In this document: in pieces, positions 12,239-60,658 of the stretch
Layout of the letters: each line of letters starts with the position of its first letter
Position numbering within the stretch: position 1 is the first letter of the stretch
From: Actinomyces massiliensis 4401292
GTDB taxonomy: Bacteria > Actinomycetota > Actinomycetes > Actinomycetales > Actinomycetaceae
Assembly (NCBI RefSeq): GCF_000269805.1
Contig: NZ_JH711481.1
Coordinates: 683,779 to 747,778, forward strand
Length of the DNA: 64,000 bases
Direction: 5' to 3'
The notes under the pieces: generated by a model
Databases searched by the model: none
The model's input: the letters and a program-made list of their open reading frames with translations, nothing else
What the model was told of the DNA's origin: nothing
Translations under genes and position numbers: made by a program

Positions 12239-12306
12239 AAATTGACATTCTCGAACGAGATCGACGGTGACACCGTCGATCTCGTTCGAGAATGTCGATC
12301 TCGACG
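12239..12306. repeat. Palindromic element, copy 1
   Basis: The two arms meet at GACGGTGACACCGTC and are complementary over about 30 bp each (CGAACGAGATCGACGGTG is the inner part). The left outer end is truncated (AAATTGACATT). It lies between the start of the YwiC-like gene and the end of pgm, 44 bp from the pgm stop codon. Confidence 0.9.
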
Positions 12307-12350
12307 CCGGAGCTCCGGTTGCGCAGGCCCGAGCGCGAGACCGCGAGCAG

Positions 12351-14033
12351 TCAGCCGCCCAGGGCGGCGGAGACGACCTTCTTGGCCTCCTCCTGGACGA
12401 GCGCCAGATGCTCGGCCCCCTTGAAGGACTCGGCGTAGATCTTGTAGACGTCCTCAGTGCCCGAGGGGCGCGCGGCGAACCAGGCGTCCTTGGTGGTCAC
12501 CTTAAGCCCGCCGATGGGGGCGTCGTTGCCGGGGGCCCGCACGAGCCGGTCGATGATCGGCTCCCCGGCGAGCTCGGTGGCGGTGACGTCCTCGGGGGAC
12601 AGGGCCGCGAGCTTCGCCTTCTCCTCCTTGGTGGCGGGCGCGTCGATCCGGGCGTAGGCGGAGGCGCCGAAGCGGGCCACCTGCTCCTCGTGCAGCTGCG
12701 AGGGCGTCTTGCCGGTGACGGCGATGATCTCGCTGGCCAGGAGAGCCAGGATGATGCCGTCCTTGTCCGTGGTCCACACGGTGCCGTCCTTGCGCAGGAA
12801 GGAGGCTCCCGCGCTCTCCTCGCCGCCGAAGCCGACGGAGCCGTCGATGAGTCCGGGCACGAAGTACTTGAATCCGACGGGCACCTCAATGAGCGTGCGC
12901 CCCATGGCCGCCACCACCCGGTCGATGAGGCTGGAGGAGACCAGGGTCTTGCCCACCGCGCAGCCCTCGGGCCACTCGGGCCGGTGGGTGAAGAGGTACT
13001 CGATGGCCACGGCCAGGAAGTGGTTGGGGTTCATCAGCCCGCCGTCGGGGGTGACGATGCCGTGGCGGTCGGAGTCGGCGTCATTCCCGGTGGCGACGTC
13101 GTAGGGGGTCTTGCCCTCGGCGTCGGGCGTCATCTTCCCCCGCAGGGAGGCCATGGCGTTGGGGGAGGAGCAGTCCATGCGGATCTTGCCGTCCCAGTCC
13201 AGGGTCATGAAGTGCCAGGCCGGATCCACCTCGGGGTTGACCACCGTGAGCTCGAGACCGTAGCGCTCGCCGATGGCGCCCCAGTAATCGACGGAGGCGC
13301 CGCCCAGCGGATCAGCCCCGATGCGCACGCCCGCCTCCCGGATGGCGTCCAGATCGATGACGTTCTCCAGGTCAGCGACGTAGGTCTCGAGATAGTCGTG
13401 CTTGATGACGTGAGGGTCGTCGAGGGCGGTGGCGATCGGCGTGCGCGGCACATCGCGCCAGCCGCCGGCCAGCAGCTCGTTGGCGCGGTCCGCGATCCAT
13501 CCGGTGGCATCCGAGTCCGCGGGGCCGCCGTGCGGCGGGTTGTACTTGAAGCCGCCATCGCGCGGCGGGTTGTGGGAGGGGGTGATGACGATGCCGTCGG
13601 CCAGGCCCGGGCCGGTGGTGCGCACGCCCGCCTCGGTGCCGGCGCCGTTGGCCCGCAGGATGGAGTGCGAGACCGCCGGGGTGGGCGTGTAGGAGCCGCG
13701 GGCGTCGACGGCGGTCGTGACCCCGGCTGCAGTGAGAACCTCGATGGCGGTGCGCCAGGCGGGCTCGGACAGCCCGTGGGTGTCGCGGCCGAGGTAGAGG
13801 GTGCCGTCGGTGCCCTGGGAGCGCCGGTACTCGATGATCGCAGCGGTGATCGCCACGATGTGGGCCTCGTTGAAGGCGGTGTCCAAGGAGGAGCCGCGGT
13901 GGCCCGAGGTGCCGAAGACCACCTTCTGGGCCGGGACCGCGGGGTCGGGGACGAGGTCGTAGTAGGCGGAGACGACCTCGTCGATGTTGACGAGGTCTTC
14001 GGGCTGTGCTGGCTGTCCTGCGCGTGGATGCAT
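12351..14033 (-). CDS. pgm: Phosphoglucomutase (alpha-D-glucose phosphate-specific)
   Basis: A 560-residue phosphohexomutase of full length for the family. It interconverts glucose 1-phosphate and glucose 6-phosphate in the cytosol, linking glycogen or nucleotide-sugar metabolism to glycolysis. The catalytic phosphoserine loop is [13 protein letters not shown] (S153), the metal loop is [12 protein letters not shown], the sugar-binding loop is [10 protein letters not shown], and the phosphate-binding loop near the C-terminus is [15 protein letters not shown]. All four domains appear intact. The ATG at 14033 starts the protein with a Pro/Gln-rich tail before [17 protein letters not shown]. It stands alone on the minus strand. 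A long open frame on the other strand over this gene is only a codon-bias shadow. Confidence 0.95.
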
Positions 14034-14244
14034 GACGGCAGTGTGTCACTGATCACGGAGCGTGTCTCGAGAATCCCGAAAGTCGGACGCGTGATTTTGA
14101 CGTGACGTTCTCGCACCGTTCTGCTCCGGCTCTTCTTCCCGTTTCAGCCGGCCGTTGCGACCCGCGCCGTCGGGGGTCGTCTGATGTGGTCGGCCGCCGT
14201 CGGAGTGCCGTCTGCTTCCGTCGTCCTGCCTGGGCCCGGCCGGT

Positions 14245-15153
14245 TCAGCTGATCCCGTCGACCAGCCACGGCAGCACGTTGCGCCTGGTGGCGACCCACA
14301 GCTCGGCGCGAGTCACCCTGCCCCGGGTCACGACCAGTGAGCCCTGCAGGATGTGGGGGACGTCGTGGAACTGCCGGTAGCTCTCGCCGGCGTCGACGGC
14401 GACCCGGCCCTTGCCCAGCAGGTGCAGGCGGACGGTGGGGCGCTGCGGGTCCGCCGTGAGGGCGGCCGTCACCCGGGGCGGGAGCCCCTGCGGCAGGATC
14501 AGGCCGACGTCGGCGGCGTTCTCGGCGGGATCCTGGCTCACGGCCGCGACGAGGACGTCCAGGTGACTGTCGTCCACGACCTGGAGGAGCGATCTCCCCT
14601 GGTCGGTGTCCACGCATAGGCGGGTCCAGTCCACGGCGCCGCGCGCCCGGTCCCGCTCGGAGGCGACGACCTGATGCAGCGAGCCGTTCTCGTCCCCGCT
14701 GCCGCCGGCCAGGTGCTCACGGTCCTCCCGGCGGTGCAGGAACGCGACCGACATGATGCTGGGCAGGCGGATGCCGTGGATGTGAGCGAGCTCGGCGACG
14801 TCGAGGGGCAGGTCCGGCCGGCTGGAGGTGTCGAAGCCGTCGGTCCTGATTTTCTTGCGCTGCGCCCGGGTGTGGCCGAAGGGCGAGTACTTCCAGGTGG
14901 TGCCCAGCAGCAGAGTGGAGGCCTTGCGCGCATGCGGACGGGTCGCCATGGCCGTGCCCAACTCCCGTTGGAACCGCGACCCGGTGAACCGGGCTCCTCT
15001 CCGGATGCCGCCGGGCAGGGCGCCGCGCACAGTCTCATCGGCTCGTCGTGCTGCCCGGGAGGCGACCATGGATGCCGCTTGCCCGCCGGCTTGCGCCAGC
15101 TTCCCGACGGTGCGCTGCGCCTGTTCGCGCCGGTCCTCATGAGGGGTGCCCAC
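14245..15153 (-). CDS. Conserved hypothetical protein, no family recognised
   Basis: A 302-residue soluble-looking protein that I do not recognise. The N-terminal 80 residues are Arg/Ala/Gln-rich and probably helical (REQAQRTVGKLAQAGGQAASMVASRAARRADETV). The middle contains KYSPFGHTRAQRKKIRTDGFDTSSRPDLPLDVAELAHIHGI and the C-terminal part alternates predicted strands and short helices (VRLHLLGKGRVAVDAGESYRQFHDVPHI). There is no signal peptide, no clear membrane span and no known catalytic motif. The start is a GTG at 15153. The gene stands alone, 211 bp upstream of pgm on the same strand; the gap 14034-14244 has no gene that I can support. Confidence 0.6.
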   Translation of the reverse strand: MGTPHEDRREQAQRTVGKLAQAGGQAASMVASRAARRADETVRGALPGGIRRGARFTGSRFQRELGTAMATRPHARKASTLLLGTTWKYSPFGHTRAQRKKIRTDGFDTSSRPDLPLDVAELAHIHGIRLPSIMSVAFLHRREDREHLAGGSGDENGSLHQVVASERDRARGAVDWTRLCVDTDQGRSLLQVVDDSHLDVLVAAVSQDPAENAADVGLILPQGLPPRVTAALTADPQRPTVRLHLLGKGRVAVDAGESYRQFHDVPHILQGSLVVTRGRVTRAELWVATRRNVLPWLVDGIS

Positions 15154-15329
15154 GGCTGCGTCTCCTCGCTCTCCTCAGTGGTTGGTACCCAGATTCCGCT
15201 CCGCCGGTTTCCGACGGGCGGGGCGCGGGGCGGTGTCGGGGTGAGCACAGGCTATCCGTCGGTCGTGCGCAGCGAGTGTGGGCGACTGGCCGCCCACTGA
15301 GCCCGCACCAGAGCCGGGCCGCCCGGCGG

Positions 15330-15365
15330 TAAGGTGGCTGCGTTAACAGTTATGCGTTAACAGTT
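15330..15365 (+). promoter_or_regulatory. ridA promoter with tandem GTTAAC operator repeats
   Basis: A TAAGGT hexamer (15330-15335) resembles an actinobacterial -10 box. Immediately after it come two direct copies of TGCGTTAACAGTT, separated by one base (15339-15365), each with a GTTAAC palindrome at its core, placed over the expected transcription start. A repressor site is likely; the regulator is unknown. Confidence 0.45.
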
Positions 15366-15417
15366 CACAGCAGCCGCTCGCCCGGTTCAGCACCCGCCAT
15401 CGCCTAGGAGCTCCCCT

Positions 15418-15909
15418 TTGTCCGCATCCGTCGACCCCACCGGTTCTGCCGCCTCTGCAGCCTCCACCGATTCCGCCACTCCTGCAGCCTCCGCCGCCCC
15501 CGCAGCCTCGGTCACCGCCGTGTCCACCGCCGCCGCACCCGCCGCCGCCGGGCCCTACTCCCAGGCCGTGTCCACAGGGTCCACCGGGTCCACAGGGTCC
15601 ACCGTATACATCTCTGGTCAGGTGCCTCTGGATCCCGCCACCGGTGCGCTCGTCGAGGGCGGCATTCAGGCTCAGGCCGAGCGGGTGCTGACCAACATCG
15701 GGGCGATCCTCGAGGCGGCCGGCCTGAGCTACGCCGACGTCGTCAAGACCACTGTCCTGCTGGCCGATATCGCCGACTTCAAGGCCGTCAACGAGGTCTA
15801 CGCCCGCTTCTTCACCGGACCGGTGCTGCCCGCCCGCGCCGCCTTCGCCGTCGCCGGCCTCCCCCTGGGGGCGAGGGTCGAGATCGAGGCGGTCGCTCTC
15901 CGGCCCTGA
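15418..15909 (+). CDS. RidA family reactive-intermediate deaminase
   Basis: The last 125 residues are a complete YjgF/YER057c/UK114 (RidA) domain: APAAAGPYSQAV, VYISGQVPLDPATG, a VKTTVLLADIADF core, YARFF, and the signature PARAAFAVAGLPLGARVEIEAVAL, whose Arg binds the substrate carboxylate. RidA enzymes hydrolyse reactive enamine/imine intermediates made by PLP enzymes. The TTG at 15418 is preceded by TAGGAG at good spacing. It adds a 35-residue Ala/Ser/Thr linker absent from ordinary RidA proteins; a GTG at about 15521 would give the standard length. A Gly-Ser-Thr repeat (STGSTGSTGST) sits inside the domain after the PYSQAV motif. Confidence 0.85.
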   Translation: MSASVDPTGSAASAASTDSATPAASAAPAASVTAVSTAAAPAAAGPYSQAVSTGSTGSTGSTVYISGQVPLDPATGALVEGGIQAQAERVLTNIGAILEAAGLSYADVVKTTVLLADIADFKAVNEVYARFFTGPVLPARAAFAVAGLPLGARVEIEAVALRP

Positions 15910-15934
15910 GACGGCGGGCGGACTGCACCTTCCC

Positions 15935-16009
15935 GCGTCGAGATCGACATTTTCGGACGAAGGCGACGGTGCCACCGTCGATCTCATTCGAAAAAGTCGA
16001 CCTCGACGC
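15935..16009. repeat. Palindromic element, copy 2
   Basis: Located 26 bp after the ridA stop. The outer ends GCGTCGAG and CTCGACGC pair, which shows the longer, about 75-bp form of the element. The arms carry several mismatches (CGGACGAAGG against ATCTCATTCG), so this copy is somewhat degraded. Confidence 0.9.
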
Positions 16010-16099
16010 AGAGGGCACGCACGGGGGCGCGTGTTACCCGGGCAATTCTCCCCATGCGGGGCGCCCCGCGCGCAGCGGTGGCCGACTACCGTTGAGGCG

Positions 16100-17695
16100 G
16101 TGAACGACACACTGATCCGCTGGGGCGGCTCCCGCGCCGTCGTGTCCTTGTCCCTCAAGATCATCGTCATCCTCCTGCTCGTGGGCGGGGTGCCGTTGCT
16201 GGCCTTCTGGCCCTTCGGGAAGACGCATGCGCCCACCGTGGAGGTCTACGACGAGGCCAACGTGCTCCAGGACAACGGAACCGCCTCCTCCCTGGAGAAC
16301 CTGCGTTTCCGCAAAGACGTGAAACTCGTCGTCGTCACCCTGGATGCCGGCTACAACGACAATTTCAACAGCGCGGTGCTGGCCTACGCGCGCCAGGACC
16401 ACCCGGAGTGGATCAGCGCCTCCAACCCCAACTATTGGGCGGACGGCACGGTCATCCTCGGGGTCTCGCCGAAGGGCAGATGGACCGGCTGCTATTTCGG
16501 CGAGGACGTCAAAGTCGACCTGGCCATTCAGCAAGAAATCCAGGACGCGGGCAAGGACTCCTTCCGTCAAGGCCTGTGGGCGCCCGGCGTCGAGCGGATG
16601 GCCGCCCGCACCGCCGACGTCATAGGGCGTCCGATCCCCTCCGATACCGCAGCGGTCATCATCTCCGGGATCGGAGCAATCGGCGGCCTCGCGCTGGGGG
16701 TTGTGATGCTCGTGAGGCGCAGCGATGCACGGGAGGCCTTCACCCGAGCCCGGCGCCACTACACCCAGGTCACCACCGACTACGAGGGCACCCAGATCAA
16801 GGCCGGTCTCATTCCCACCGACGACGCCCACGGCGCTCAGATCCTGGCCCGTTTCGCCTGGTTCGAGGACCGTTACGCCGAGTTGACCCGGGCTTTCTAC
16901 GACTTCGGGGAGCCCCGCAGGGCCGAGTGGTTCGAGTGGGACCGCAAGACGGATGCCGAGAGGCTCGAGGTTCGGGCCGCCGCACTCGACTCCCTCGACG
17001 ACGCCATCTCCAACGCCTCCGACCTGCTGACCATGTCCCAGAGCTGGCGGGAGGCCTGGCGCAATGAGCAGGGGCCGGTCCGCGAGGACCTGGCCTCCTT
17101 CCGGAAGCTGTGCTCCTCGGTGCAGGCCAAGGGCGAGCTCGATATCACCCAGGAGCGCATTTGGCTGAAGGCGAGCTTGGACCGGATGGCGGCCATGACC
17201 AATGAGATGGAGGCGGGGGCGCTGTCGCCCTCGGCGGCGCTCGACGAGCTGGACACCATCTCTCAGGATGTGCGTACCCGGGCCGAATCTTTGGCGAGGC
17301 GGGCGCTGAAGGCAGACACCTCCTCCTACCGAAATGGCCGTCTGCACCGATACGAGTCCTCGCAGAGTAGAAGGGTGCGCAACAGCGATGCCTATGCGGG
17401 CTGGTGGCTGTTCGATGGGCACCGCATCTCCTACGACCCGGCGTCGACCATTCGCATCAACCCGTCCTCCGTGGGCGCCAACGCCTCCGGAGTGCATTGG
17501 ACCGGTGCGGGATCGGCGTCCCACTTCTCGACGCCGATCGCCGATCTCGTCACCGGGTACAGCTCGGCGGCGAATTGGCAGCCGCCGTCGTCCTCCTCGT
17601 CCTCCTCCTTCTCCGACTCGGGCGGTTTCTCCGGTGGTGGCGGTTTCTCCGGCGGCGGGGACTTCTCCGGCGCCGGGTCGAGTTCGCATTTCTGA
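16100..17695 (+). CDS. Membrane protein with TPM-like extracytoplasmic domain and Gly/Ser-rich tail (DUF5129-like), copy 1
   Basis: A 531-residue protein with one N-terminal membrane anchor (LSLKIIVILLLVGGVPLLAFW) and a luminal domain beginning VEVYDEANVLQD, as in TPM/YgcG-type proteins. A second span lies around residues 185-206 (VIISGIGAIGGLALGVVML), followed by a long helical, probably coiled-coil cytoplasmic region rich in Arg, Glu and Ala. It ends in a flexible tail, GGFSGGGGFSGGGDFSGAGSSSHF. GTG 16100 is preferred to the upstream in-frame ATG because TACCGT lies seven bases before it. The next gene is a clear paralogue with the same plan. Function unknown; TPM domains occur in photosystem-repair and membrane-quality-control proteins, and assignment to DUF5129 is from memory of Actinomyces proteins. 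Confidence 0.7.
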   Translation: MNDTLIRWGGSRAVVSLSLKIIVILLLVGGVPLLAFWPFGKTHAPTVEVYDEANVLQDNGTASSLENLRFRKDVKLVVVTLDAGYNDNFNSAVLAYARQDHPEWISASNPNYWADGTVILGVSPKGRWTGCYFGEDVKVDLAIQQEIQDAGKDSFRQGLWAPGVERMAARTADVIGRPIPSDTAAVIISGIGAIGGLALGVVMLVRRSDAREAFTRARRHYTQVTTDYEGTQIKAGLIPTDDAHGAQILARFAWFEDRYAELTRAFYDFGEPRRAEWFEWDRKTDAERLEVRAAALDSLDDAISNASDLLTMSQSWREAWRNEQGPVREDLASFRKLCSSVQAKGELDITQERIWLKASLDRMAAMTNEMEAGALSPSAALDELDTISQDVRTRAESLARRALKADTSSYRNGRLHRYESSQSRRVRNSDAYAGWWLFDGHRISYDPASTIRINPSSVGANASGVHWTGAGSASHFSTPIADLVTGYSSAANWQPPSSSSSSSFSDSGGFSGGGGFSGGGDFSGAGSSSHF

Positions 17696-17726
17696 GCGGC
17701 TGCTTCTCTGGGCGGGCCGAGGTGGA

Positions 17727-17796
17727 CGAGATCGACATTTTCGGACGAAGGCGACGGTGACACCGTCGATCTCGTTCGAGAATGTCGATCTCGACG
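17727..17796. repeat. Palindromic element, copy 3
   Basis: Situated 32 bp after the first TPM-like gene and 40 bp before the second. The left arm has the CGGACGAAGGCGACGG variant also seen in copy 2 (15935-16009), while the right arm is standard, so the two arms do not pair fully. Confidence 0.88.
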
Positions 17797-17836
17797 GGGC
17801 GGGCGCAAGGAGAGAGCGAAGAGAGGAACGGCCGTC

Positions 17837-19540: not shown

Positions 19541-19607
19541 CGAGGTCGACTTTTTCGAACGAGATCGACGGTGGCACCGTCGATCTCGTTCGAAAAAGTC
19601 GACCTCG
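19541..19607. repeat. Palindromic element, copy 4
   Basis: Perfectly symmetric 67 bp. The usual ATTCTCGAA / TTCGAGAAT arm segment is changed to TTTTTCGAA on one side and TTCGAAAAA on the other, so both arms changed together. It lies 97 bp after the second TPM-like gene. Confidence 0.92.
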
Positions 19608-19720: not shown

Positions 19721-19727
19721 AGAACTC

Positions 19728-21247: not shown

Positions 21248-21314
21248 CGAGATCGACATTCTCGAACGAGGGCGACGGCGCCACCGTCGATCTCGTTCGA
21301 GGATGTCGATCTCG
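21248..21314. repeat. Palindromic element, copy 5
   Basis: 67 bp, 95 bp after the AlbA/Schlafen-type gene. Small asymmetric changes: GAGGGCGACGGCG on the left against CACCGTCGATCTC on the right, and TTCGAGGATG on the right arm. Confidence 0.9.
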
Positions 21315-23455: not shown

Positions 23456-23522
23456 CGAGATAGACATTTTCGAACGAGATCGACGGTGCCACCGCCAACC
23501 TCGTTCGAAAATGTCAATCTCG
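23456..23522. repeat. Palindromic element, copy 6
   Basis: Lies between two convergent genes, 32 bp after one stop and 14 bp before the other. ATTTTCGAA pairs with TTCGAAAAT (both arms differ from the ATTCT/AGAAT consensus). The inner right arm CACCGCCAACCTC does not pair with GAGATCGACGGTG; the copy inside lhr has the same right-arm variant. Confidence 0.9.
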
Positions 23523-29710: not shown

Positions 29711-29801
29711 GCCGGTTGCCGGGCCGTCCGTCCACGCCGGGACTTGCGCTGTCTCTGCTTTCCGTCGGCCCCCGCGCTCCCTCCGTCGGTCCCTGTCTCA
29801 G

Positions 29802-29822
29802 TCGAAAATGTCAATCTCGACG
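29802..29822. repeat. Palindromic element, half copy (7)
   Basis: Only the outer right arm remains (TCGAAAATGTCAATCTCGAC), joined directly to a 22-bp repeat array. It is a decayed or deleted element 92 bp after the lacI stop. Confidence 0.75.
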
Positions 29823-29837
29823 AGGATGCGGTGGGTG

Positions 29838-29925
29838 GACCGAGTCTCGGTGCGGAACTCGACCGATCTCGACGCGGAGTACGACCGATCTCGGTGCGGA
29901 AGTGGACCGATTTCGGTGCGGATTG
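29838..29925 (+). repeat. 22-bp tandem repeat array 3 (four units)
   Basis: Units GACCGAGTCTCGGTGCGGAA, CGACCGATCTCGACGCGGAG, CGACCGATCTCGGTGCGGAA and GGACCGATTTCGGTGCGGAT in tandem at 22-bp spacing, directly after the half palindrome and about 155 bp before the aldolase start. Confidence 0.8.
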
Positions 29926-29975
29926 GCGGGCCGGGCTCGGGGTGTGTGCTCACTCTTGATGTGCACAGATGTGCA

Positions 29976-31161: not shown

Positions 31162-31228
31162 CGAGATTGACATTCTCGAACGAGATCGACGGTGCCACCG
31201 TCGATCTCGTTCGAGAATGTCGACCTCG
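31162..31228. repeat. Palindromic element, copy 8
   Basis: 67 bp, nearly perfect arms around GACGGTGCCACCGTC; only the outer GAGATTG/CGACCTC pair is imperfect. It sits in the 536-bp gap between the aldolase and the pullulanase-type gene. Confidence 0.92.
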
Positions 31229-31333: not shown

Positions 31334-31393
31334 GAGATCGGGTGCCCTGTGTCGAGATCGGTTCATTTCCGCGCCGAAATCGGTTCGGTAGCG
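31334..31393 (-). repeat. 22-bp tandem repeat array 4 (about three units, minus orientation)
   Basis: Units GAGATCGGGTGCCCTGT, GTCGAGATCGGTTCATTTCC and GCCGAAATCGGTTCGGTAGC, degenerate relatives of the reverse complement of the 22-bp unit. They lie 112 bp upstream of the pullulanase-type start, after a TACACATAAT-like promoter region, and may affect its expression. Confidence 0.65.
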
Positions 31394-31504: not shown

Positions 31505-34500
31505 ATGACTGACGACCCTCGTATCAGCACGAAGACCCCGGACAGTGCCGTACCCACGGTCTGGCCGATTGTTCCGGATCTGCAGCGTCACCATGAGGCT
31601 CCGGTGCGGCGCCCCATCCCCGGAGCCGGGCAGGCCCGGGCTTACTGGGTTGATGAAACGACTCTGGCATGGCCCGCCGACCTGCTTCCCAAAGGGGTCA
31701 CCCCCGCTATGTGCGTGGGTCCTCACCATGGCCGCCCCCGCAGCGCCCCGCCCGTCAGCTTCGGGTTGGTCTCCTCCCCCGATGGACAGGCCCATGTTCG
31801 GGACGGACTGCTGCATCGCGGCCCCCACGGCTCCGAGGTTCCCCTCGTCCTGGTCGGCGAGGTCGGCCCCGAGGTCGTGGCCGCTCATCCACAGCTGAGC
31901 GGCTACTTGGCGCTGACCACCGTCGACGACTTCGGTGATCCCCGTTTGGGGCGCGCGGACGTCGAAGCGCTTCTGACCGGCCAACTCGCCGTCGTCCAGC
32001 GGACGGCCTCGGCCTCGGGCGGCTGGCTCACGGCTTTCACGGGTGTGCAGATCTGGCCGCTGATCGATCGCTTCTGGGGAGGCGCCGCCTCGACGCGAGA
32101 CGGCTCGGCTCCACTGGGCGTCCGCTTCGTCGAACCGCAGGCCCCTGATGGCGCAGATGGCGCCGACGGCGCCGGTGACGCTGCCGGTTCCGAGAGCGCC
32201 GGGGACACCGAGGGCGCAGAGGGCGTCGAGAGCGCCGGGGGCACAGAGACCGCCGGGGTCACCGAGGGCACTGCGCTCCCGGCCTTCGCCCTGTGGGCGC
32301 CGACCGCCCTGGCCGTCACGCTCCTGGCCTGGGAGACCGGCGACCCGACGGGATCGTCGCCTCTGGTCGATGACCCGCCCATGCGCTTGCCCGCTCATCG
32401 GTGCGATGACGGCCGATGGGAGGTGGATCCGGGTCGCGTCGGCGCCGGTGCGCAGTACCTGTGGGAAGTCGAGGTGTTCGTCCCCTCGACGGGACGGGTC
32501 GAGCTCAACCGGGTCACCGATCCCTACAGCACGGCTCTGACGGTCGATTCGCGCCGGTCGGTCGCCGTCGATCTGGGGCAGCGCGCTCTCAAGCCCACTG
32601 CCTGGTGCGAGAACCTCAGCCCCGTCGTCCACTCCGACGCCGCACGGGCCATCTACGAACTTCACGTGCGCGACTTCTCCTGCACCGACGAGTCCGTACC
32701 GGCCGAGCTGCGCGGGACCTACGCCGCGTTCACCGTCGATTCGCTCGGCACCCGCCACCTGGGTGCGCTGGTGGGCGCGGGCGTCGACACCCTGCACCTG
32801 CTGCCGATTTTCGACACCGCCACCATCCCCGAGGACCGGGCCGACCAGAAGTCCCCCGAGATTCCGGCCGATACCTCGGCCTCCTCGCGCCGTCCCCAGG
32901 CGGCGGTGGCGGCCGTGGCCGACAGCGACGCCTACAACTGGGGCTACGACCCGTATCACTGGATGGCCCCGGAGGGCTCCTACGCGCGCGAAGGCCACCA
33001 GGACGGCGGCGCCCGCACGCGCGAGGTGCGCGACATGGTGGGGGCGCTGCACGGCATGGGCCTGCAGGTCGTTCTCGACCAGGTGTACAACCACACCGCC
33101 GCGGCGGGCCAGGACCCGTGCTCCGTGCTCGACCGGATCGTGCCCGACTACTACCACCGCCTCGACGTCTACGGCGCCATCGAGATGAGCACCTGCCGCA
33201 ACAACGTGGCCACCGAGCGCGCCATGGCCGAGCGGCTCATGATCGACGCGTGCGTGGCCTGGGTGCGCGACTACCGGGTCGACGGCTTCCGCTTCGACCT
33301 CATGGGCTACCACAGCATCGGCACAATGGCCCGCCTGCGCGAGGCGCTGGACGAGATCGCCGAGGACGCCGTCGGACACCCCATCTACCTTTACGGCGAG
33401 GGCTGGAACATGGGGGAGGTGGCCGACAACGCTCTGTTCCGCCAGGCCTGCCAGGGGCAGGTCGGCGAGCTGGGCATCGGCACCCTCAACGACCGGGTGC
33501 GCGACGCCGTCCACGGCGGCAGCTTCAAGCAGCCCGACCCGCGGACGGATCAGGGCCTGGGCAACGGGGAGCTGACCGACCCCAACGCCGTGGAGGAGCG
33601 CAAGAAGGATGCGGCGCGCAGGGACCTCGCCTGGCGCAGCGACCTGGTGCGGCTGTCACTGGCCGGCAACCTGCGCGACTACACCCTGCTGACCTCCGAC
33701 GGGCAGTGGCGACGCGGCGACGAGATCGGGTACGGGGAGTCCCCGGCGGCCTACGGCATCGAGCCCGTGGACTCCATCGCCTACGTGTCCTCCCATGGCG
33801 ACGAGACCCTTTTCGACCGCCTGGCGTACAAGCTGCCGCTGCCCACCTCCATGGCGGACCGGGTGCGCATGAACACCCTGTGCCTGGCCATCGCCACGCT
33901 GGGCCAGTCGCCGGCCTTCTGGGCGGCGGGTTGCGAGCTGCTGCGCAGCAAGTCCCTGGACACCGATTCCTACAATTCCGGCGACCACTTCAACGCCATC
34001 GACTGGTCCGGGCGGGACAACGGCTGGGGGCGGGGATTGCCGCCGGCGGGGCGCAACTTCGAGTCCTGGATCATCCAGGCCGAGCTGCTCGCCCATGACG
34101 AGCTGCGCCCCACCGCCCGCGACATCGCCGCCGCCCAGGAGCAGGCTCTCGATGTTCTGCGACTGCGGCGCAGCACGCCGCTGTTCTCCCTGGGGTCCGC
34201 CGAACTCATCCGTGAGCGCGTGAGTTTCCCGTCCAGTGGTCCGCGTGCGCAGCCCGGCATCATCATCATGGTGATCGACGACGGCGCGGGCGAGGCGGAT
34301 GTTGACCCCGCGCTGGACGGGGTCGTGGTGGTGATCAATGCGACGCCGCGCGAGGTCAGCCAGCGGGTCGACGCCCTGGTGGACCGCTTCCTGGTGCTCT
34401 CCGAGGTCCAGGTCTGCGGTGTGGACCCGGTGGTGCGCGAGACCCGTTTCGACGCCTCCACCGGCCTGGTGACGATTCCCGCGCGCACGGTCGCGGTGCT

Positions 34501-34513
34501 CGTCGAGCCCTAG
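31505..34513 (+). CDS. Pullulanase-type GH13 protein with a missing catalytic Asp
   Basis: A 1002-residue protein of the type I pullulanase / alpha-1,6-glucosidase family, expected to debranch glycogen, starch or pullulan. It has an N-terminal ARAYWVDETTLAWP domain, a CBM48-like region (FALWAPTALAVTLLAWETGDPTG), and the barrel motifs VLDQVYNHTAA and DGFRFDLMGYHS (nucleophile D598), followed by YLYGEGWNMGE (acid/base E632). The expected HDNETL of region IV is HGDETL at H764-G765-D766, so the transition-state Asp is replaced by Gly. The paralogue at 56176-59115 keeps HDNETL. A Gly/Ala/Glu repeat (GADGAGDAAGSESAGDTEG) interrupts the N-terminal part. ATG 31505 follows AGGAAGG. No signal peptide is evident, so cytoplasmic glycogen is the likely substrate if active. 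Confidence 0.85.
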   Translation: MTDDPRISTKTPDSAVPTVWPIVPDLQRHHEAPVRRPIPGAGQARAYWVDETTLAWPADLLPKGVTPAMCVGPHHGRPRSAPPVSFGLVSSPDGQAHVRDGLLHRGPHGSEVPLVLVGEVGPEVVAAHPQLSGYLALTTVDDFGDPRLGRADVEALLTGQLAVVQRTASASGGWLTAFTGVQIWPLIDRFWGGAASTRDGSAPLGVRFVEPQAPDGADGADGAGDAAGSESAGDTEGAEGVESAGGTETAGVTEGTALPAFALWAPTALAVTLLAWETGDPTGSSPLVDDPPMRLPAHRCDDGRWEVDPGRVGAGAQYLWEVEVFVPSTGRVELNRVTDPYSTALTVDSRRSVAVDLGQRALKPTAWCENLSPVVHSDAARAIYELHVRDFSCTDESVPAELRGTYAAFTVDSLGTRHLGALVGAGVDTLHLLPIFDTATIPEDRADQKSPEIPADTSASSRRPQAAVAAVADSDAYNWGYDPYHWMAPEGSYAREGHQDGGARTREVRDMVGALHGMGLQVVLDQVYNHTAAAGQDPCSVLDRIVPDYYHRLDVYGAIEMSTCRNNVATERAMAERLMIDACVAWVRDYRVDGFRFDLMGYHSIGTMARLREALDEIAEDAVGHPIYLYGEGWNMGEVADNALFRQACQGQVGELGIGTLNDRVRDAVHGGSFKQPDPRTDQGLGNGELTDPNAVEERKKDAARRDLAWRSDLVRLSLAGNLRDYTLLTSDGQWRRGDEIGYGESPAAYGIEPVDSIAYVSSHGDETLFDRLAYKLPLPTSMADRVRMNTLCLAIATLGQSPAFWAAGCELLRSKSLDTDSYNSGDHFNAIDWSGRDNGWGRGLPPAGRNFESWIIQAELLAHDELRPTARDIAAAQEQALDVLRLRRSTPLFSLGSAELIRERVSFPSSGPRAQPGIIIMVIDDGAGEADVDPALDGVVVVINATPREVSQRVDALVDRFLVLSEVQVCGVDPVVRETRFDASTGLVTIPARTVAVLVEP

Positions 34514-34540: not shown

Positions 34541-34607
34541 CGAGGTCGACATTCTCGAACGAGATCGACGGTGCCACCGTCGATCTCGTTCGAGAATGTC
34601 GACCTCG
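34541..34607. repeat. Palindromic element, copy 9 (best copy)
   Basis: A perfect 33-bp inverted repeat around a single central C, 28 bp after the pullulanase-type stop and 42 bp before the DUF488 start. I use this copy as the reference for the family. In RNA it would fold into a very stable stem. Confidence 0.95.
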
Positions 34608-42190: not shown

Positions 42191-42284
42191 GCGCCCCAGG
42201 CTACGGCGGCGCGGGTGCGCCGGCGGGCATCTTGACCGGCTCCCCAAGGCGAGCCTTGAAGGGCGCGGAGCCCGGCGGGCGCTT

Positions 42285-42371
42285 CGAACCGATCTCGAGC
42301 CGGAGTGCGACCGATCTCGAGGCGGAACTGGACCGATCTCGAGGCGGAGTGCGACCGATCTCGGCGAAAAG
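42285..42371 (+). repeat. 22-bp tandem repeat array 5 (four units)
   Basis: GAACCGATCTCGAGCCGGAG, GACCGATCTCGAGGCGGAAC, GACCGATCTCGAGGCGGAGT and CGACCGATCTCGGCGAAAAG at 22-bp spacing, 80 bp upstream of the rarA promoter and 38 bp from a palindromic element. The last unit ends GATCTCGGCGAA, exactly as in array 2. Confidence 0.85.
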
Positions 42372-42408
42372 AGGGGGCGGGGGTGGGCGGCTCCTGCGTC
42401 GAGGTTGA

Positions 42409-42475
42409 CGAGATTGACATTCTCGAACGAGATCGACGGTGGCACCGTCGATCTCGTTCGAAAATGTCTATCTGG
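42409..42475. repeat. Palindromic element, copy 10
   Basis: 67 bp in the gap between the rarA start and the ROK gene, 54 bp after the ROK stop codon (which is at 42530 on the minus strand). The right outer end is altered (AAAATGTCTATCTGG), and an extra GTCGAGGTTGA precedes the left end. Confidence 0.9.
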
Positions 42476-44865: not shown

Positions 44866-44932
44866 CGAGATTGACATTCTCGAACGAGGGCGACGGTGCC
44901 ACCGTCGCCCTCGTTCGAGAATGTCTGTTTGG
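44866..44932. repeat. Palindromic element, copy 11
   Basis: Lies 22 bp after the preceding stop. GAGGGCGACGGTG on the left and CACCGTCGCCCTC on the right both differ from the consensus (GATC to GGGC) yet still pair: a compensatory double change. The right outer end is altered (ATGTCTGTTTGG). Confidence 0.92.
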
Positions 44933-46323: not shown

Positions 46324-46397
46324 CCCTTTACTACGCTCCTTTCCCCCTTAGTGTACGGGGGCGAGGAGCGTAGTAAGGGGTGAACAGGCGTAGTAAG
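46324..46397. repeat. TTACTACGC hairpin and GCGTAGTAAG repeat motif, copy 1
   Basis: CCCTTTACTACGCTCCT pairs with AGGAGCGTAGTAAGGG (one base unpaired) around a 23-nt loop. The right arm runs into GCGTAGTAAG-N10-GCGTAGTAAG (46368-46397). The same 30-bp motif, with three differences, is at 61456-61485. Here it lies between two convergent genes and may act as a terminator. Confidence 0.7.
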
Positions 46398-47630: not shown

Positions 47631-53333
<5,703 letters not shown>

Positions 53334-53773: not shown

Positions 53774-53789
53774 CCCTGTCATGACAGGG
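53774..53789. repeat. 16-bp perfect palindrome
   Basis: CCCTGTCATGACAGGG, without spacer, 26 bp before the long hairpin. It could be a protein-binding site or part of a termination structure. Confidence 0.6.
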
Positions 53790-53815
53790 TTCTTGAGTTT
53801 CCGTAGAAATGTGTT

Positions 53816-55243: not shown

Positions 55244-55488
55244 ATAAGTCAGCACTGAAATATGAGGGCGATTCGCGCAACCGACGCCGGTGGGGTGACT
55301 GTGATCGTGATTCCGACAATCGGGGGCGGTCAGCGCGCAACCGACGTCCGGGCCCGGCCGGGGGCGGACTGCGAGCCGGTGCGGTCCGCCGTCCTGGAGT
55401 CCGGAATGTGAGGTGCCCTTGGTCAACCGGAGACGCTCTGGAACGATAATGGGACATTCGTCCCTCCATCAGGAAGAAACGAGACGCC

Positions 55489-56028: not shown

Positions 56029-56175
56029 CGGGCCGACGGGGCCGACTCACTCGCTCACTCGCAGACCGGCCCGAGGTGGGACACGGCCGCGACGAGTGAG
56101 GGGCTAGCGCAGTGACCTGAAGCAGCTCACCGGGGCGGACCGACGCGGCCGCGACGAGGACGGACGGGTGAGGGG

Positions 56176-59115
56176 CTAGTTCTTGCCCGATTTCCCCGGC
56201 CTCGGCGCTCCCGGCCGCTTCTTCGCCGCTTGGTCCTGAACCAGCACCGCCACGGTGCGCGCCGGCACGCTCACCGTCCCCGTGGACCGGTCGAAGCCGG
56301 TCTGCCGCACGACGTCGTCGGCCCCCTCGGCCTGGATCGGGGAGAGGTGGAAGTCCCGCCCCGCCAGCTCGGTCAGGGATTGGGTGAGCGTCTGCCCGGA
56401 GGCGTTGAAGACCACCAGGACGCCGTCCAGGGACGGGTCCACGTCCCGCTTCCCGGCGGTGTCATCGATGAGCATGACGATGATGCCCGGCGGGGCCGCG
56501 AAGCCCGAGCCCGGGAAGCTCAGCTTGTCCCGGATGAGGCCGGCGTCCCCCAGGCTGAACAAGGGCGTGGAGGAGCGCAGTCGCAGCAGGTCCAGGGCCT
56601 GCGCCCGGGCCATCGCGATCTCGTCGGGCGAGGGGCGCAGCCACGCATCCGCCAACAATGGCCCCTGAATGTGCCAGACCCCCTCGTTCTGCCTCGCCGG
56701 GGGCAGCCCTCGGCCGAATCCGTTGCGCTGTCCCGAGAAGTCGATGGCGTTGAACCAGTCCCCGGAGTTGTAGGAGTCCCGGTCCAGGGACTTGCTGCGC
56801 AGCAGCTCGGTGCCGGCGCACCAGAAGGACGGCGACTGCCCCAACGTCACCGTGGCCAGGCAGACGGTGTTCATCCGCACCCGTTCGGACACGGGCATCC
56901 CCCGCGGCAGCTTGTAGGCCAGCAGGTCGTACAGGGTCTCGTTGTCGTGGGCGTCGACGTAGTTGACGTTCTCCTGCGGACTGGAGGTGTAGGCGGCCGG
57001 TGCGCCGTTGTGGATGAGGTCGGCGCCCCGGCGCACTGAGCCGTCCGAGACCGTCATGACGTAGTCGGTCAGATTGCCCACCAGCCCCAGTCTCACCAGG
57101 TCGGTGCGGTGAGCCAGATCCGCCGACTGGTAGTCCCAGCTGCGCTTGTCGAGCCCGCTGGGCTGGGTGAGCAGGCCCGTGCCGAAGCCCTGGAAGATGC
57201 GGTGGTCGGCGTCGAAGGGCGCCCCGCCGTGGACGGCATCGCGCAGGCGGTCGTTGAAGACGCCGATGCCGGTGCCGTTCAGCTGCCCCTGGGTCGCCTG
57301 GACGAACAGGGCGTTGTTCGCGACCTCCCCGAAGTTCCAGCCCTCCCCGTACAGGTAGATCGAGGAGCCGTCGACGCCGTCGGCCTCCACGGTGAGCCGG
57401 TCCAGGGCGGTGCGCAGGCGCTCCATGACGGCGCGCGGGTGATGCCCCATGAGGTCGAAGCGGAAGCCGTCCACCCGGTAGCACCTGGCCCAGCGCACCA
57501 CCGAGTCGATCATGAGGCGCTCGCACATGGCGTGCTCGGTGGCGGTGTTGGCGCAACAGGTCGAGTTCGTCACCTTCCCGACGGCGTCGAGCCGGTGGTA
57601 GTAGCCGGGCACCACCCTGTCCAGAACGCTGAGACGGTCCTGCCCGCAGGCCGCCATGTGGTTGTAGACCTGGTCGAGCACCACCTGGTAGCCCAGGGCG
57701 TGCAGGGCGCCGACCATCTGCCGGAACTCGACGATGCGCGCCCCGCCGTCCTGGTGGCCATCGGTGGCGTAGGAGCCCTCGGGGGCGCCCCAGTGGAAGG
57801 GGTCGTAACCCCAGTTGTAGGCGTCGCGGTCGGCCACGGCCGACACCGCCGCCTGCTGCTCGGTGGAGGCCGGCCCCAGCCCCTTGGGGATCTCCGGGGA
57901 GTGCTGACCGGCCCGGTCCTCCGGGATCGTGGCGATGTCGAAGGTGGGCAGCAGGTGGATGGTGTTCATCCCGGCACCCGCCAATTCCGCCAGGTGGCGC
58001 ACACCGGTGGAGTCCTCCATGGTGAAGGCCCGGTAGGTGCCGCGCAGCTCGGCCGGGACGGTCTCGTCGGCGGCCGAGAAGTCGCGCACGTGCAGCTCGT
58101 AGATGCTGCGGGCGGAGTCGTTGCGAACCGGCGGGGCGGGGACGGCGGCCCACTGGTCGGGCGCCAGGCGCGCATCGGCGAGGTCGACGGCGACCGAGCG
58201 GGTGGAGTCGGTCGTCAGCGCCGTCGAGTAGGGGTCGGTGACGATGTTGGTCTCCACCCGGCGGGTGGAGGGCACGTACACCTTCACCTCCCACAGGTAC
58301 TGGCAGCCGACGCCGATCCGGCCGTCGGCGTTGGGCACGCACCAGCGACCGTCATCGCCCTGGATGGCGGGGGTGCGCGTGGCGGGGCCGGGCATTTCGG
58401 GCACGGAGCCGAGGGGATCGCCGGTCTGCCAGGTCAGCAGCGTGACGGTCTTGGCGGTGGGCGCCCACAGGGCGAAGGAGGGGCGGTCGGTATCGACGTT
58501 GTCGGAACTGTCGTCGTCGGGGCCTTCGGAACTGCCGTCGCTGAAGGTGACGCCCAGGTCGGCGCGGGAGGCGGCCTCGGTGTAGAGGCGGTCCAGGACG
58601 ATGGCGGTCTGCACGCCGGTGAAGGCGTCCAGGCGCCCCCCGTTGCCGTCCGTGTTGGCGTCCACGTGCTGGGCCACCGCCACCTGGCCGGTCAGGGCGG
58701 CGGCGATGGCGTCGCCGTCGAGCAGGGGCGTGCCGGCGGAGTCGGTCGGGCTCAGGGCGATATAGCCCTCCAGGTTGGGGTGGGCGGTGCGAACGCTCTC
58801 GGGCAGATTGCCGACGACGCGCAGGGGCGTGAGCGTGGGGGCGGCCAGGCCGTCCGCGCCCACGATGCGTCCGTGGACGGCGGCTGCACCGCCCTCGGGG
58901 GCCGTGACCAGCTGGAAGGCCAGGCCGGTGCCGGGGACGGGCCGGCCCGAATCGGTGACGACTTTCTCGCGGTTCATTCCCCTGGGCAGCAGGGACATCG
59001 GCCAGGCCAGGAGGTCGGGGGCGACCCAGTAGGCGCGCTGCTCCTCGCTGCCGGCGACGGGTGGGAGGGACGTGACGGTATCGAGTGTGAAGCTGATCGT
59101 GTAGGTGAAGGTCAT
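56176..59115 (-). CDS. Pullulanase / alpha-1,6-glucosidase, GH13
   Basis: A 979-residue debranching enzyme of the pullulanase-type alpha-1,6-glucosidase family, expected to hydrolyse alpha-1,6 branch points in glycogen, starch or pullulan. The N-terminal domain contains QRAYWVAPDLLAWPMSLLPRG, then a CBM48-like FALWAPTAKTVTLLTWQTGDP. The barrel motifs are ELHVRDFS, VLDQVYNHMAACG, VDGFRFDLMGHH (nucleophile), YLYGEGWNFGEVANN (acid/base) and NYVDAHDNETLYD (third Asp, D724). All three carboxylates are present, unlike the paralogue at 31505-34513. The C-terminal tail is basic (KKRPGAPRPGKSGKN). No signal peptide: a cytoplasmic, glycogen-directed role is likely. Divergent from the membrane-protein gene at 59291. 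Confidence 0.92.
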   Translation of the reverse strand: MTFTYTISFTLDTVTSLPPVAGSEEQRAYWVAPDLLAWPMSLLPRGMNREKVVTDSGRPVPGTGLAFQLVTAPEGGAAAVHGRIVGADGLAAPTLTPLRVVGNLPESVRTAHPNLEGYIALSPTDSAGTPLLDGDAIAAALTGQVAVAQHVDANTDGNGGRLDAFTGVQTAIVLDRLYTEAASRADLGVTFSDGSSEGPDDDSSDNVDTDRPSFALWAPTAKTVTLLTWQTGDPLGSVPEMPGPATRTPAIQGDDGRWCVPNADGRIGVGCQYLWEVKVYVPSTRRVETNIVTDPYSTALTTDSTRSVAVDLADARLAPDQWAAVPAPPVRNDSARSIYELHVRDFSAADETVPAELRGTYRAFTMEDSTGVRHLAELAGAGMNTIHLLPTFDIATIPEDRAGQHSPEIPKGLGPASTEQQAAVSAVADRDAYNWGYDPFHWGAPEGSYATDGHQDGGARIVEFRQMVGALHALGYQVVLDQVYNHMAACGQDRLSVLDRVVPGYYHRLDAVGKVTNSTCCANTATEHAMCERLMIDSVVRWARCYRVDGFRFDLMGHHPRAVMERLRTALDRLTVEADGVDGSSIYLYGEGWNFGEVANNALFVQATQGQLNGTGIGVFNDRLRDAVHGGAPFDADHRIFQGFGTGLLTQPSGLDKRSWDYQSADLAHRTDLVRLGLVGNLTDYVMTVSDGSVRRGADLIHNGAPAAYTSSPQENVNYVDAHDNETLYDLLAYKLPRGMPVSERVRMNTVCLATVTLGQSPSFWCAGTELLRSKSLDRDSYNSGDWFNAIDFSGQRNGFGRGLPPARQNEGVWHIQGPLLADAWLRPSPDEIAMARAQALDLLRLRSSTPLFSLGDAGLIRDKLSFPGSGFAAPPGIIVMLIDDTAGKRDVDPSLDGVLVVFNASGQTLTQSLTELAGRDFHLSPIQAEGADDVVRQTGFDRSTGTVSVPARTVAVLVQDQAAKKRPGAPRPGKSGKN

Positions 59116-59290
59116 GATGGTGTCCTACCGAACAGAGGCGTGGTGCTGATGCTGTGGCCTGAGCCGCAAGCGACTCCGCTCACGCCGTAGTCTTCTCCTC
59201 CTGGCCGCCGGGTGCTACCCCCGGGCGGGAGGCAAAAGTTGGGGAGGGCTGCCCGGTCCGGTGCGACCGGTGCGATGGCAGACTGCGGTC

Positions 59291-60574
59291 ATGACGTTCC
59301 CCCCAGTGCCCGAGCACCCCTCTGATCAGGGTCTCGACGGCGATCCCGGAGTCAGTGGAGTCAGCGGAGCTAGCGGAGATGAAGCTGACGGAGGTGACGG
59401 GGCGCATCGGTCGGCTGAGCTCGCCGGGTCGGCCGGGGGTGTTGGCGCCTACGCGGTCAATGGCACCCCCGGGACCGTCCCGGGCTCGGCGTCCTCCGCT
59501 CCGCTGAGCGGTTATCCGGGCGGGATGCCTTCCGGTCCGTATGGCGCCTCGTACTCTGCAGGAGCTCAGGCGGGCCCTCAGGTCCCGGGAAGCGCGCCGA
59601 TCGCATACGCGCACACGTATGGACACCAATACGGGCCCGTGCCCGGACGCAGGCCGATCCCCCGCCAGCCCTCCAGGGCCGGCCTGTTCGTGATTCTCGC
59701 TGCGCTGTTGACGTGTCAGCTGGCGTTTCCTTTTCTCAGTTCAATAGGGAGTTATGCTGGGTTTAGTCTGATCGATATGGTGTACCGGTTCGTATTCAGC
59801 TCGATGACATGGATAGTCGTTGTGGGGATTGTTCAGGCTGTCAAGCGCCGGCCGATTCCGAGTTTTATCCCCGCTGCGGCTATGTCGGTCGCCTCTTCAG
59901 TGTTCGACCTTGTCCTTGTCGTCGCTTATGCGGGTGGGCATACATTCCTGAGTGCAGTCACGAACGCCTCCTTCTTCCTTATTTCTTTGATCGAGGTCTG
60001 CCTGTTCATGATTGCCGGCTGGATGAGTTGCACGAGGCTTCGTGGTCGGCCCGGCTCACCACCGATTTCTGTGCTGCTGTCGTCTGGGGCAGCGCAGTTC
60101 CTGCTCGTTCTGGCAGCAGGGAGGCTGGTCAATGCGCCCGTTCTTCTGCTTATGAGTGGAGTCGGCGCGCCGTTCGACCAGTATGGAGCTGATATGAGGC
60201 TCGGGTACGGCCTGTACTGGTATGCGAATTCCCAGCCTGTGGGTGGTGCGGTGCCCTTCGGTGTGGGGCTGGCGATTCTTATCGTGGTGGGGCTGGCGGC
60301 GGCGGGAGCCGTCGTCATGTCTCGGCCGGGCGGGTCACGGGTCACACTCGTGGCGGGATCCGCTGTGGCTTCGGGGGTCTTCTTGCTGCACTCCCTGTAC
60401 GCTACGATCCTGACTTTTCTTGCAGAGTCGCACAGCCCTGGCGGCTCGTTCGAGGATCTGGGGTATGCGGTGCCGCTCGTGATCGCGGCTGCGCTCATGA
60501 TCGGCATGTCCTTGGCGGGGCTGGCGCCGAGCGCCCGCGCATGGTTCGCCGGCCAACGATGGTCTTCGTCTTGA
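59291..60574 (+). CDS. Hypothetical polytopic membrane protein
   Basis: A 427-residue protein with a disordered Gly/Pro/Ala/Tyr-rich cytoplasmic N-terminus (about 125 residues: GYPGGMPSGPYGASYSAGAQ, and onward) and then about eight to nine membrane segments (AGLFVILAALLTCQLAFPFL, WIVVVGIVQAV, LISLIEVCLFMIAGWMSC, and others). No family recognised. The membrane part, about 59715-60230, is visibly poorer in GC and uses A/T-ending codons unlike its neighbours, while the N-terminal tail has normal high-GC codons, as if a host-type tail were joined to an acquired membrane domain. ATG 59291 is the first start after the divergent promoter gap. Confidence 0.6.
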   Translation: MTFPPVPEHPSDQGLDGDPGVSGVSGASGDEADGGDGAHRSAELAGSAGGVGAYAVNGTPGTVPGSASSAPLSGYPGGMPSGPYGASYSAGAQAGPQVPGSAPIAYAHTYGHQYGPVPGRRPIPRQPSRAGLFVILAALLTCQLAFPFLSSIGSYAGFSLIDMVYRFVFSSMTWIVVVGIVQAVKRRPIPSFIPAAAMSVASSVFDLVLVVAYAGGHTFLSAVTNASFFLISLIEVCLFMIAGWMSCTRLRGRPGSPPISVLLSSGAAQFLLVLAAGRLVNAPVLLLMSGVGAPFDQYGADMRLGYGLYWYANSQPVGGAVPFGVGLAILIVVGLAAAGAVVMSRPGGSRVTLVAGSAVASGVFLLHSLYATILTFLAESHSPGGSFEDLGYAVPLVIAAALMIGMSLAGLAPSARAWFAGQRWSSS

Positions 60575-60591
60575 GTATTCCACCCTCTCGT

Positions 60592-60658
60592 CGAGGTTGA
60601 CATTCTCGAACGAGATCGACGGTGGCACCGTCGCCGTCGTCCCGAAATGTCGACCTCG
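60592..60658. repeat. Palindromic element, copy 13
   Basis: Lies 17 bp after the preceding stop and 18 bp from the stop of the convergent SDR-like gene. The right arm is degraded (CGTCGCCGTCGTCCCGAAATG), so symmetry is only partial. Confidence 0.88.

What the first reader, a model, noticed from the sequence alone, without database searches (positions are those of the whole stretch)
12239..60658. Family of 67-79 bp palindromic elements with co-varying arms
Twelve complete copies and one half copy share a 33-bp arm around GACGGTGnCACCGTC. Several changed in both arms at once: TTTTT/AAAAA in 19541-19607, ATTTT/AAAAT in 23456-23522, GGGC/GCCC in 44866-44932. Such paired changes suggest selection for a hairpin, or arm-to-arm correction. 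Most copies lie 17-100 bp after a stop codon. I know of no described element with this sequence. It could be a terminator cassette, a REP/BIME-like element or a MITE.
Basis: seen in the sequence. Interest (0 to 1): 0.78.

Follow-up and report, generated by a model that had tools for sequence, protein, structure and literature searches.

The report
Hairpin DNA repeats with matching arms
A family of short mirror-image DNA repeats sits mostly just behind genes in some Actinomyces bacteria; each species has its own version, and the way their two halves match suggests that one half is copied from the other during DNA copying.

Summary
The repeats are real: 12 copies in the window, 74-75 in the genome. 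Ten of 49 Actinomyces genomes match the architecture; no other of 36 sampled genera did. Each species has its own arm sequence ("dialect") on one plan: 33-nt arm, 1 nt, 33-nt arm. Most copies lie close behind stop codons.

The 12 window copies alone do not show covariation. With 184 distinct copies from 7 species, the two arms of a copy agree beyond chance at columns 5-20 in 6 of 7 species (not A. gerencseriae), and at inner columns 23-33 in none. Mismatches show no RNA signature (G.U 26, A.C 26). In 11 matched loci of two species the elements are not detectably more alike than random cross-species pairs.

Best reading: a REPIN-like family, homogenised within each genome, whose arms are kept alike by fold-back (quasipalindrome) template switching. 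No Y1 transposase was found in 49 genomes, and no convincing target-site duplication. My paper searches showed no description. What spreads them is unknown. A selected hairpin with an internal loop remains possible.

The parts
12237..12303 (.). palindromic element, copy 1 (one arm ends in the variant CCAAATT); a palindrome lies at the matching site in A. israelii
15939..16005 (.). palindromic element, copy 2; no palindrome (threshold 18 of 26 pairs) at the matching site in 4 relatives
17727..17793 (.). palindromic element, copy 3 (left arm identical to that of copy 2)
19541..19607 (.). palindromic element, copy 4 (perfect; TTTTT/AAAAA variant)
21248..21314 (.). palindromic element, copy 5
23456..23522 (.). 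palindromic element, copy 6 (between convergent genes)
29797..29822 (-). half copy (outer part of one arm, two differences from the consensus), followed by 22-bp repeats; absent at the matching site in A. israelii and oral taxon 448
31162..31228 (.). palindromic element, copy 7; no palindrome at the matching site in A. israelii (intergenic gap 114 vs 335 bp) or A. gerencseriae
34541..34607 (.). palindromic element, copy 8 (perfect); at the matching site A. gerencseriae has units of the 22-bp repeat and A. israelii about one such unit instead
42409..42475 (.). palindromic element, copy 9; absent at the matching site in A. israelii (gap 54 vs 181 bp)
44866..44932 (.). palindromic element, copy 10 (GGGC/GCCC variant; one arm CCAAACA); a close counterpart in G011
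52753..52819 (+). palindromic element, copy 11, in frame inside a predicted Lhr helicase gene (residues about 1674-1696 of ORF 47733-53333), in a linker that differs in A. gerencseriae
60592..60658 (.). palindromic element, copy 12, 18 bp from the stop of gene 60677-61375 (-) and 17 bp after ORF 59261-60574 (+), which my gene caller did not take

Best explanation
The elements are a REPIN-like family of dispersed, non-coding DNA palindromes (67 bp, with about 3 further conserved bp on each side in this genome). They occupy mostly gene 3' ends in a subset of Actinomyces and turn over within each genome, so that each species has its own dialect. The palindrome is kept at the DNA level. When a replicating strand has passed the centre and made about 10 nt of the second arm, it folds back on the first arm, primes there, and copies the first arm outward for about 15-20 nt before returning to its template. 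That makes the middle and outer parts of the two arms identical and leaves the innermost ~10 nt, which served as primer, uncorrected. Shown: family, positions, dialects, the step between columns 20 and 23, the lack of an RNA-strand signature. Inferred: the fold-back copying itself, and that the same self-primed synthesis may accompany spread to new sites. Unknown: the protein that spreads or reads them.
For: Arm agreement above chance at columns 5-20 in 6 of 7 species (kappa 0.30-0.90, p at most 0.036) and not at columns 23-33 taken together in any (kappa -0.34 to 0.21, p at least 0.07): 184 distinct copies. Same step column by column in the own genome and A. israelii (the one inner column that agrees there, 25, does so through a single copy). 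Discordant columns come in neighbouring blocks in the own genome (variance 3.89 vs 1.52 simulated, 0 of 2000), as copy tracts would give. Flanking columns -2 to 0 do not covary. G.U and A.C mismatches equal in copies oriented by transcription (26:26 in columns 1-22 of the own-genome tandem copies; 54:55 over 49 tandem copies of three species). No difference between 5' and 3' arms (39 copies). Species dialects. Turnover: matched loci show no detectable extra similarity; sites without the palindrome in relatives. Template switching that perfects inverted repeats, and maintains hairpin stems, is established (PMC7202029 and PMC8604942: starts of abstracts in the listing; PMC8794818: abstract and one section).
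Against: In A. gerencseriae (36 distinct copies) the outer arms do not agree beyond chance overall (p 0.26; single columns 20, 19 and 13 do, z 3.9, 2.2, 2.1). Inner columns are often opposite rather than random (negative kappa in A. israelii, G032, A. gerencseriae), so a founder with an asymmetric centre, copied many times, could explain part of the inner result. Shuffles do not remove relatedness between copies; in G031 the outer value rests partly on two dialects. Copies were found with models or patterns that reward symmetry, and in several species only part of the copies was used (26 distinct of 40 in A. israelii, 12 of 19 in oral taxon 448, 16 of 32 in G032; totals). Eight columns are invariant in 148 own-genome arms, which correction alone does not explain and which points to sequence-specific selection as well. 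Partly conserved positions (10 of 31 A. israelii stretches match an own-genome element locus on both flanks) suggest constraint on place or repeated insertion.
Confidence: 0.5

Rival explanations
1. A selected DNA or RNA hairpin: the stem at columns 1-22 and the tip at columns 29-33 pair, with a tolerated or required internal loop at columns 23-28 (as in protein-recognised ssDNA hairpins). Compensatory substitutions are fixed by selection for pairing. It would act as a structure bound by a protein, or as an mRNA 3'-end hairpin.
For: Whole-stem covariation across species is far above shuffles (200 double-changed cells vs 58, 0 of 500; 33 chosen sequences). Invariant columns. Position just behind stop codons: median 46.5 bp for 40 copies in tandem intergenic regions, closer to the stop in 34 of 40; depleted between divergent genes (5 with vs 21 without; Fisher p 0.0003). 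Recurrent asymmetry at column 28 or the tip.
Against: G.U is not favoured over A.C; no 5'/3' asymmetry; no T-run; discordances come in blocks. The sequences were mostly found with a model that rewards pairing.
Confidence: 0.25
2. A MITE or other non-autonomous element moved by an undetected transposase. New copies descend from many palindromic founders, so the arms agree because founders were symmetric; no in-place correction is needed.
For: High copy number, patchy distribution (10 of 49 genomes), a copy inside a gene, sites without the palindrome in relatives, two dialects side by side in G031.
Against: No convincing target-site duplication, no Y1 transposase, no longer element with these ends noticed (not systematically sought). 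It does not explain how so many symmetric founders arose, nor the step at columns 20-23. Positions are partly shared between species.
Confidence: 0.15
3. Binding sites for a DNA-binding protein (nucleoid, repair or uptake protein) whose specificity drifted between species, dragging all copies to a new dialect.
For: Invariant columns separated by freely varying ones; two GAGNNNGAC motifs per arm, 19 bp apart; the 22-bp arrays share the head CGAGATCG; dialect shifts at shared loci.
Against: A dimer with a fixed specificity does not predict that freely varying columns agree within a copy. The 10-bp spacing of conserved columns is weak (823 of 20000 permutations at a preset period, 1543 of 4000 over all periods). 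CGAGATCGAC occurs once outside the 12 full copies in the window, so it is not a general uptake word.
Confidence: 0.1

Closest known systems
REPINs (REP doublets forming hairpins) with RAYT transposases, Pseudomonas and others (PMC3116915, passages seen)
   Same: Inverted pair with conserved blocks and a less conserved part whose two sides show compensatory changes; high copy number; extragenic; several sequence classes
   Different: No Y1/RAYT gene found in 49 genomes; arms abut with a 1-nt centre and no spacer; single arms do not fold better than shuffles (five tried)
GTAG- and CGTC-tagged REPs (PMC3733652: abstract, sections 6 and 15, and passages seen)
   Same: Predominantly between tandem and convergent genes near stop codons; some inside genes, many of these DNA repair genes; the CGTC class also apparently lacks a dedicated transposase; CGTC is common at the outer edge here
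   Different: CGTC REPs have 8-9 bp stems, mostly 4-5 nt loops and an unpaired CGTC at one end; here a 33-bp stem, CGTC at both ends (so it can pair), and not kept in all dialects (for example G032)
Rickettsia palindromic elements (as described in PMC3733652)
   Same: A palindrome kept inside a coding gene
   Different: Only 1 of 75 copies here was found in a gene; no sequence comparison was made
Quasipalindrome correction / template-switch mutation (PMC8794818, abstract and one section; PMC7202029 and PMC8604942, listing only)
   Same: Arms of an inverted repeat made identical by copying one from the other
   Different: A mechanism, not an element family; here it is read across 184 natural copies, with an uncorrected inner zone
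DNA uptake sequence dialects in Neisseriaceae (PMC3630211, passages seen)
   Same: Species-specific versions of a genome-wide repeat, often as inverted pairs near terminators
   Different: Thousands of short words per genome there; 1 to 74 long palindromes here; core word found once outside the full copies in the window

Membership tests
REPIN / RAYT system | A Y1 (IS200-like) transposase of RAYT type in the genome | tested here: not met
   PF01797: 0 of 49 genus genomes, own genome included; control positive in 5 of 14. A very divergent HUH enzyme is not excluded.
REPIN / RAYT system | Two inverted REP units, each a small palindrome, around a spacer | tested here: not met
   Five single-arm sequences from five dialects fold no better than shuffles (z -0.30 to 1.40); the arms abut with 1 nt between
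REPIN / RAYT system | Dispersed, mostly extragenic, multi-copy | tested here: met
CGTC-tagged REP | Unpaired CGTC at one end, 8-9 bp stem, 4-5 nt loop | tested here: not met
   CGTC common at both ends in the own genome, 33-bp stem (definition)
MITE of a classical DDE transposon | Target-site duplication | tested here: not met
   74 copies; over all lengths 2-9 and offsets tried the largest excess was 9 copies against 3.9 for a 2-nt match
MITE of a classical DDE transposon | Autonomous parent with the same ends | not tested
   No systematic search for other transposases or full-length parents was made
Intrinsic terminator | Hairpin followed by a T-run on the transcribed strand | tested here: not met
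   T fraction 0.125 in 10 nt after 40 oriented copies, at most 3 T in the first 8
RNA element | Mismatches biased to G.U on the transcribed strand; gathering-score hit in Rfam | tested here: not met
   26 G.U to 26 A.C; no Rfam family in the window
DNA uptake sequence | Short word over-represented singly across the genome | tested here: not met
   CGAGATCGAC once outside the full copies in 64 kb; not counted genome-wide
Quasipalindrome correction | Arms agree beyond chance away from the centre, in tracts | tested here: met
   6 of 7 species, not A. gerencseriae; blocks tested in the own genome only
Quasipalindrome correction | Observed correction events | not testable with these tools
   One genome per species is held; strain comparisons are needed

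The most novel reading that the evidence does not exclude
The palindrome is regenerated each time it spreads: a single-stranded piece carrying one arm plus the innermost part of the other folds, primes itself and copies its own arm, giving a new palindrome that replaces or seeds a copy elsewhere. This would be a replicating hairpin repeat that needs no Y1 transposase and leaves an uncorrected inner zone as its fingerprint. It would explain at once the within-copy agreement, the inner zone, the genome-wide dialects and the lack of extra similarity between matched loci.
Probability: 0.18. Interest if true: 0.85.

Novelty: new variant of a known kind. Interest (0 to 1): 0.56.

Why it matters
REP-type repeats are usually explained by RAYT transposases; here a REPIN-like family thrives in a genus in which the Pfam Y1 model finds none in 49 genomes, so it is a clean place to ask what else spreads and keeps such repeats. 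The sharp boundary between agreeing and non-agreeing parts of the arms, seen in several species, may turn a laboratory mutation process (quasipalindrome correction) into something that can be read from natural genomes. It also warns that covarying arms in DNA repeats need not mean a selected RNA structure.

Tried and rejected
Covariation from the 12 window copies alone: not significant. RAYT/Y1: none. Target-site duplication: none convincing. Uptake sequence: rejected for the window. Helical-face periodicity of conserved columns: weak, not claimed. 5'/3' arm asymmetry relative to transcription: none. REP dimer (each arm a hairpin): rejected. Ortholog double changes (25 of 27 to the same base in columns 5-22) were first taken as evidence for in-place correction; one search shows that matched loci are not detectably more alike than random cross-species pairs, so they only show the dialect shift. 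Ten proteins beside clustered copies: 9 have ordinary Pfam matches and one none, with no transposase among them. Plasmids: no match to one copy; viral contigs: none.

Rows dropped and limits: the copy at L077:1362 (indel) left out of all arm counts; L039 and L040 (repeats of other loci) left out; duplicates left out; L218 left out. Model counts are capped (150, 150, 105 and 25 scored per genome), so the counts are used; its place list was cut but its counts are whole. The model matched 13 of 49 genomes at E 0.001, some of them weakly; G007, G034 and G035 (and G023) match a model but not the pattern. The five 'divergent' copies were not checked by hand. Gene calls come from my own script, not from an annotation.
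Full report
OBSERVATION. The 12 complete copies and the half copy are present at the stated places. Arms are 33 nt with one central base. Paired changes in 19541, 23456 and 44866 are as described. With the 12 copies alone, however, no covariation measure clearly exceeds shuffles (48 to 246 of 500 reach the observed values).

COPY NUMBER AND RANGE. The window lies at C1:683779-747778 of a 3.37-Mb genome; its nearest named relatives are Actinomyces. A covariance model of the 12 copies finds 75 loci, all 150 scored rows passing. In 200 genomes drawn from the family (36 genera; 25 candidates scored per genome) a multi-species model matches only this genus (11 of 200). The exact pattern in one genome each of 84,980 species gives 41 stretches (31 A. 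israelii, 8 oral taxon 448, 1 A. gerencseriae, 1 A. haliotis), own genome left out; viral contigs give none.

PLACE. Of 75 own-genome copies my gene calls put 40 between tandem genes, 23 between convergent and 5 between divergent genes, 6 at stretch edges and 1 inside a gene (60592, called tandem there, is convergent if ORF 59261-60574 is a gene, which gives 39 and 24). Among intergenic regions of at least 70 bp with both neighbours called, divergent ones rarely carry a copy (5 with, 21 without; p 0.0003); in tandem regions the median distance is 46.5 bp from the upstream stop and 134 bp to the next start, closer to the stop in 34 of 40. The copy at 52753 is in frame inside an Lhr helicase gene, in a linker that differs in A. 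gerencseriae.

ARMS. In 74 own-genome copies the arms of a copy match at 2126 of 2442 positions, against 2023 (sd 13) when arms are re-paired at random, 0 of 2000. The excess sits at columns 5-7 and 11-20; columns 23-33 and the flanking columns show none that is significant. A. israelii shows the same step (28 distinct copies), apart from column 25, where one copy has the rare base on both arms. Over 7 species and 184 distinct copies the outer part (5-20) agrees beyond chance in the own genome (72 distinct), A. israelii (26), oral taxon 448 (12), G032 (16; weakest, p 0.036), A. haliotis (11) and G031 (11), not in A. gerencseriae (36; kappa 0.03); the inner part agrees in none. These are part of the copies in A. 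israelii, oral taxon 448 and G032 (totals 40, 19, 32). With 9 exact-pattern copies only, oral taxon 448 was not significant over the whole arm. In A. israelii, G032 and A. gerencseriae the inner columns tend to differ between arms; in G032, 15 of 17 copies have GCAT at the inner end of one arm only. Discordant columns of the own genome cluster in neighbouring blocks.

NOT AN RNA SIGNATURE. In own-genome tandem copies oriented by transcription, G.U and A.C mismatches are equal (26:26 in columns 1-22, 24:19 in columns 23-33). The two arms do not differ in composition by their order in the transcript (39 copies, lowest p 0.24). No T-run follows. No Rfam family reaches its gathering score in the window.

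SEQUENCE CONSTRAINT. Columns 8, 9, 10, 17, 19, 21, 27 and 30 are identical in all 148 own-genome arms while other columns vary up to about 40%. A. gerencseriae has G at column 9 in most arms (53 of 72), so even these can shift with the dialect.

DIALECTS AND MATCHED LOCI. Ten of the 31 A. israelii stretches match an own-genome element locus on both flanks with a palindrome between; window 12237 makes an eleventh pair. Single further pairs were found with oral taxon 448, G062, A. gerencseriae and G011. Across the 11 A. israelii pairs the elements differ at 11.9 of 66 positions, random cross-species pairs at 12.4 (880 of 5000 permutations as low; 1295 of 5000 with one duplicated locus left out). 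With 11 pairs a small effect could be missed. So places are partly shared but sequences carry no detectable locus history: they have been homogenised, replaced or re-inserted within each lineage. Other sites lack a palindrome of at least 18 of 26 pairs: in A. israelii at 31162, 34541 and 42409, in A. gerencseriae at 15939, 17727, 19541, 31162 and 34541.

MECHANISM. Fold-back copying predicts agreement away from the centre, none in the primer zone, none outside the arms, blocks instead of single columns, and no strand signature; all were seen in the own genome. Template switching that perfects inverted repeats is established (PMC8794818, abstract and one section; PMC7202029 and PMC8604942, listing). 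An asymmetric founder plus many descents, or selection for a hairpin with an internal loop, can also give parts of this, and A. gerencseriae is an exception. I give 0.5 to the fold-back reading.

KNOWN KINDS. REPINs are the nearest kind: inverted doublets whose sides show compensatory changes, thought to be moved by RAYTs (PMC3116915, passages). No Y1 transposase is found here and single arms do not fold. CGTC REPs share position, intragenic cases in repair genes and the lack of a dedicated transposase, but are short stems with an unpaired CGTC (PMC3733652). My paper searches (listings only) showed no description of such an element in Actinomyces; subscription papers are mostly not in that library.

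Noticed in passing
1918-2000, 2104-2250, 29818-29942, 31351-31389, 42266-42390: Arrays of a 22-bp repeat (CGAGATCGGT + 12 nt) in intergenic regions, often beside the palindromes and sharing the head CGAGATCG. Head pairs spaced 22 bp: 544 in the own genome, 276 in A. israelii, 234 in A. gerencseriae, at most 17 in any of the other 46 genomes and none in 38 of them. At the site of 34541 two relatives have units of these repeats instead of the palindrome.
   Followed up: partly
46328-46397 and 61416-61485: Another pair of imperfect palindromic repeats (TTACTACGCTCC...GTAGTAAG), 81% alike.
   Followed up: no
L042 (G011:C8:2723785-2726851) against window 44866: G011 is about 76% identical to this genome at a test gene, yet its single palindrome copy has flanks 93-95% identical to the window: probable horizontal transfer.
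   Followed up: no
   Followed up: no
L068:1356 and L068:3460: Two identical copies about 2.1 kb apart around an AAA-family (AbiEii-like) gene; both have counterparts at the matching places in A. israelii.
   Followed up: partly
L210, L216, L218 (G031): G031 carries a second dialect that matches that of A. haliotis, beside its own.
   Followed up: no
31505-34513 and 56176-59115: Two pullulanase-type paralogues on opposite strands.
   Followed up: no
L118, L044 (A. gerencseriae): A further 20-bp tandem repeat family (GGTACGACCGCGCGGCATCG-like) beside some copies.
   Followed up: no
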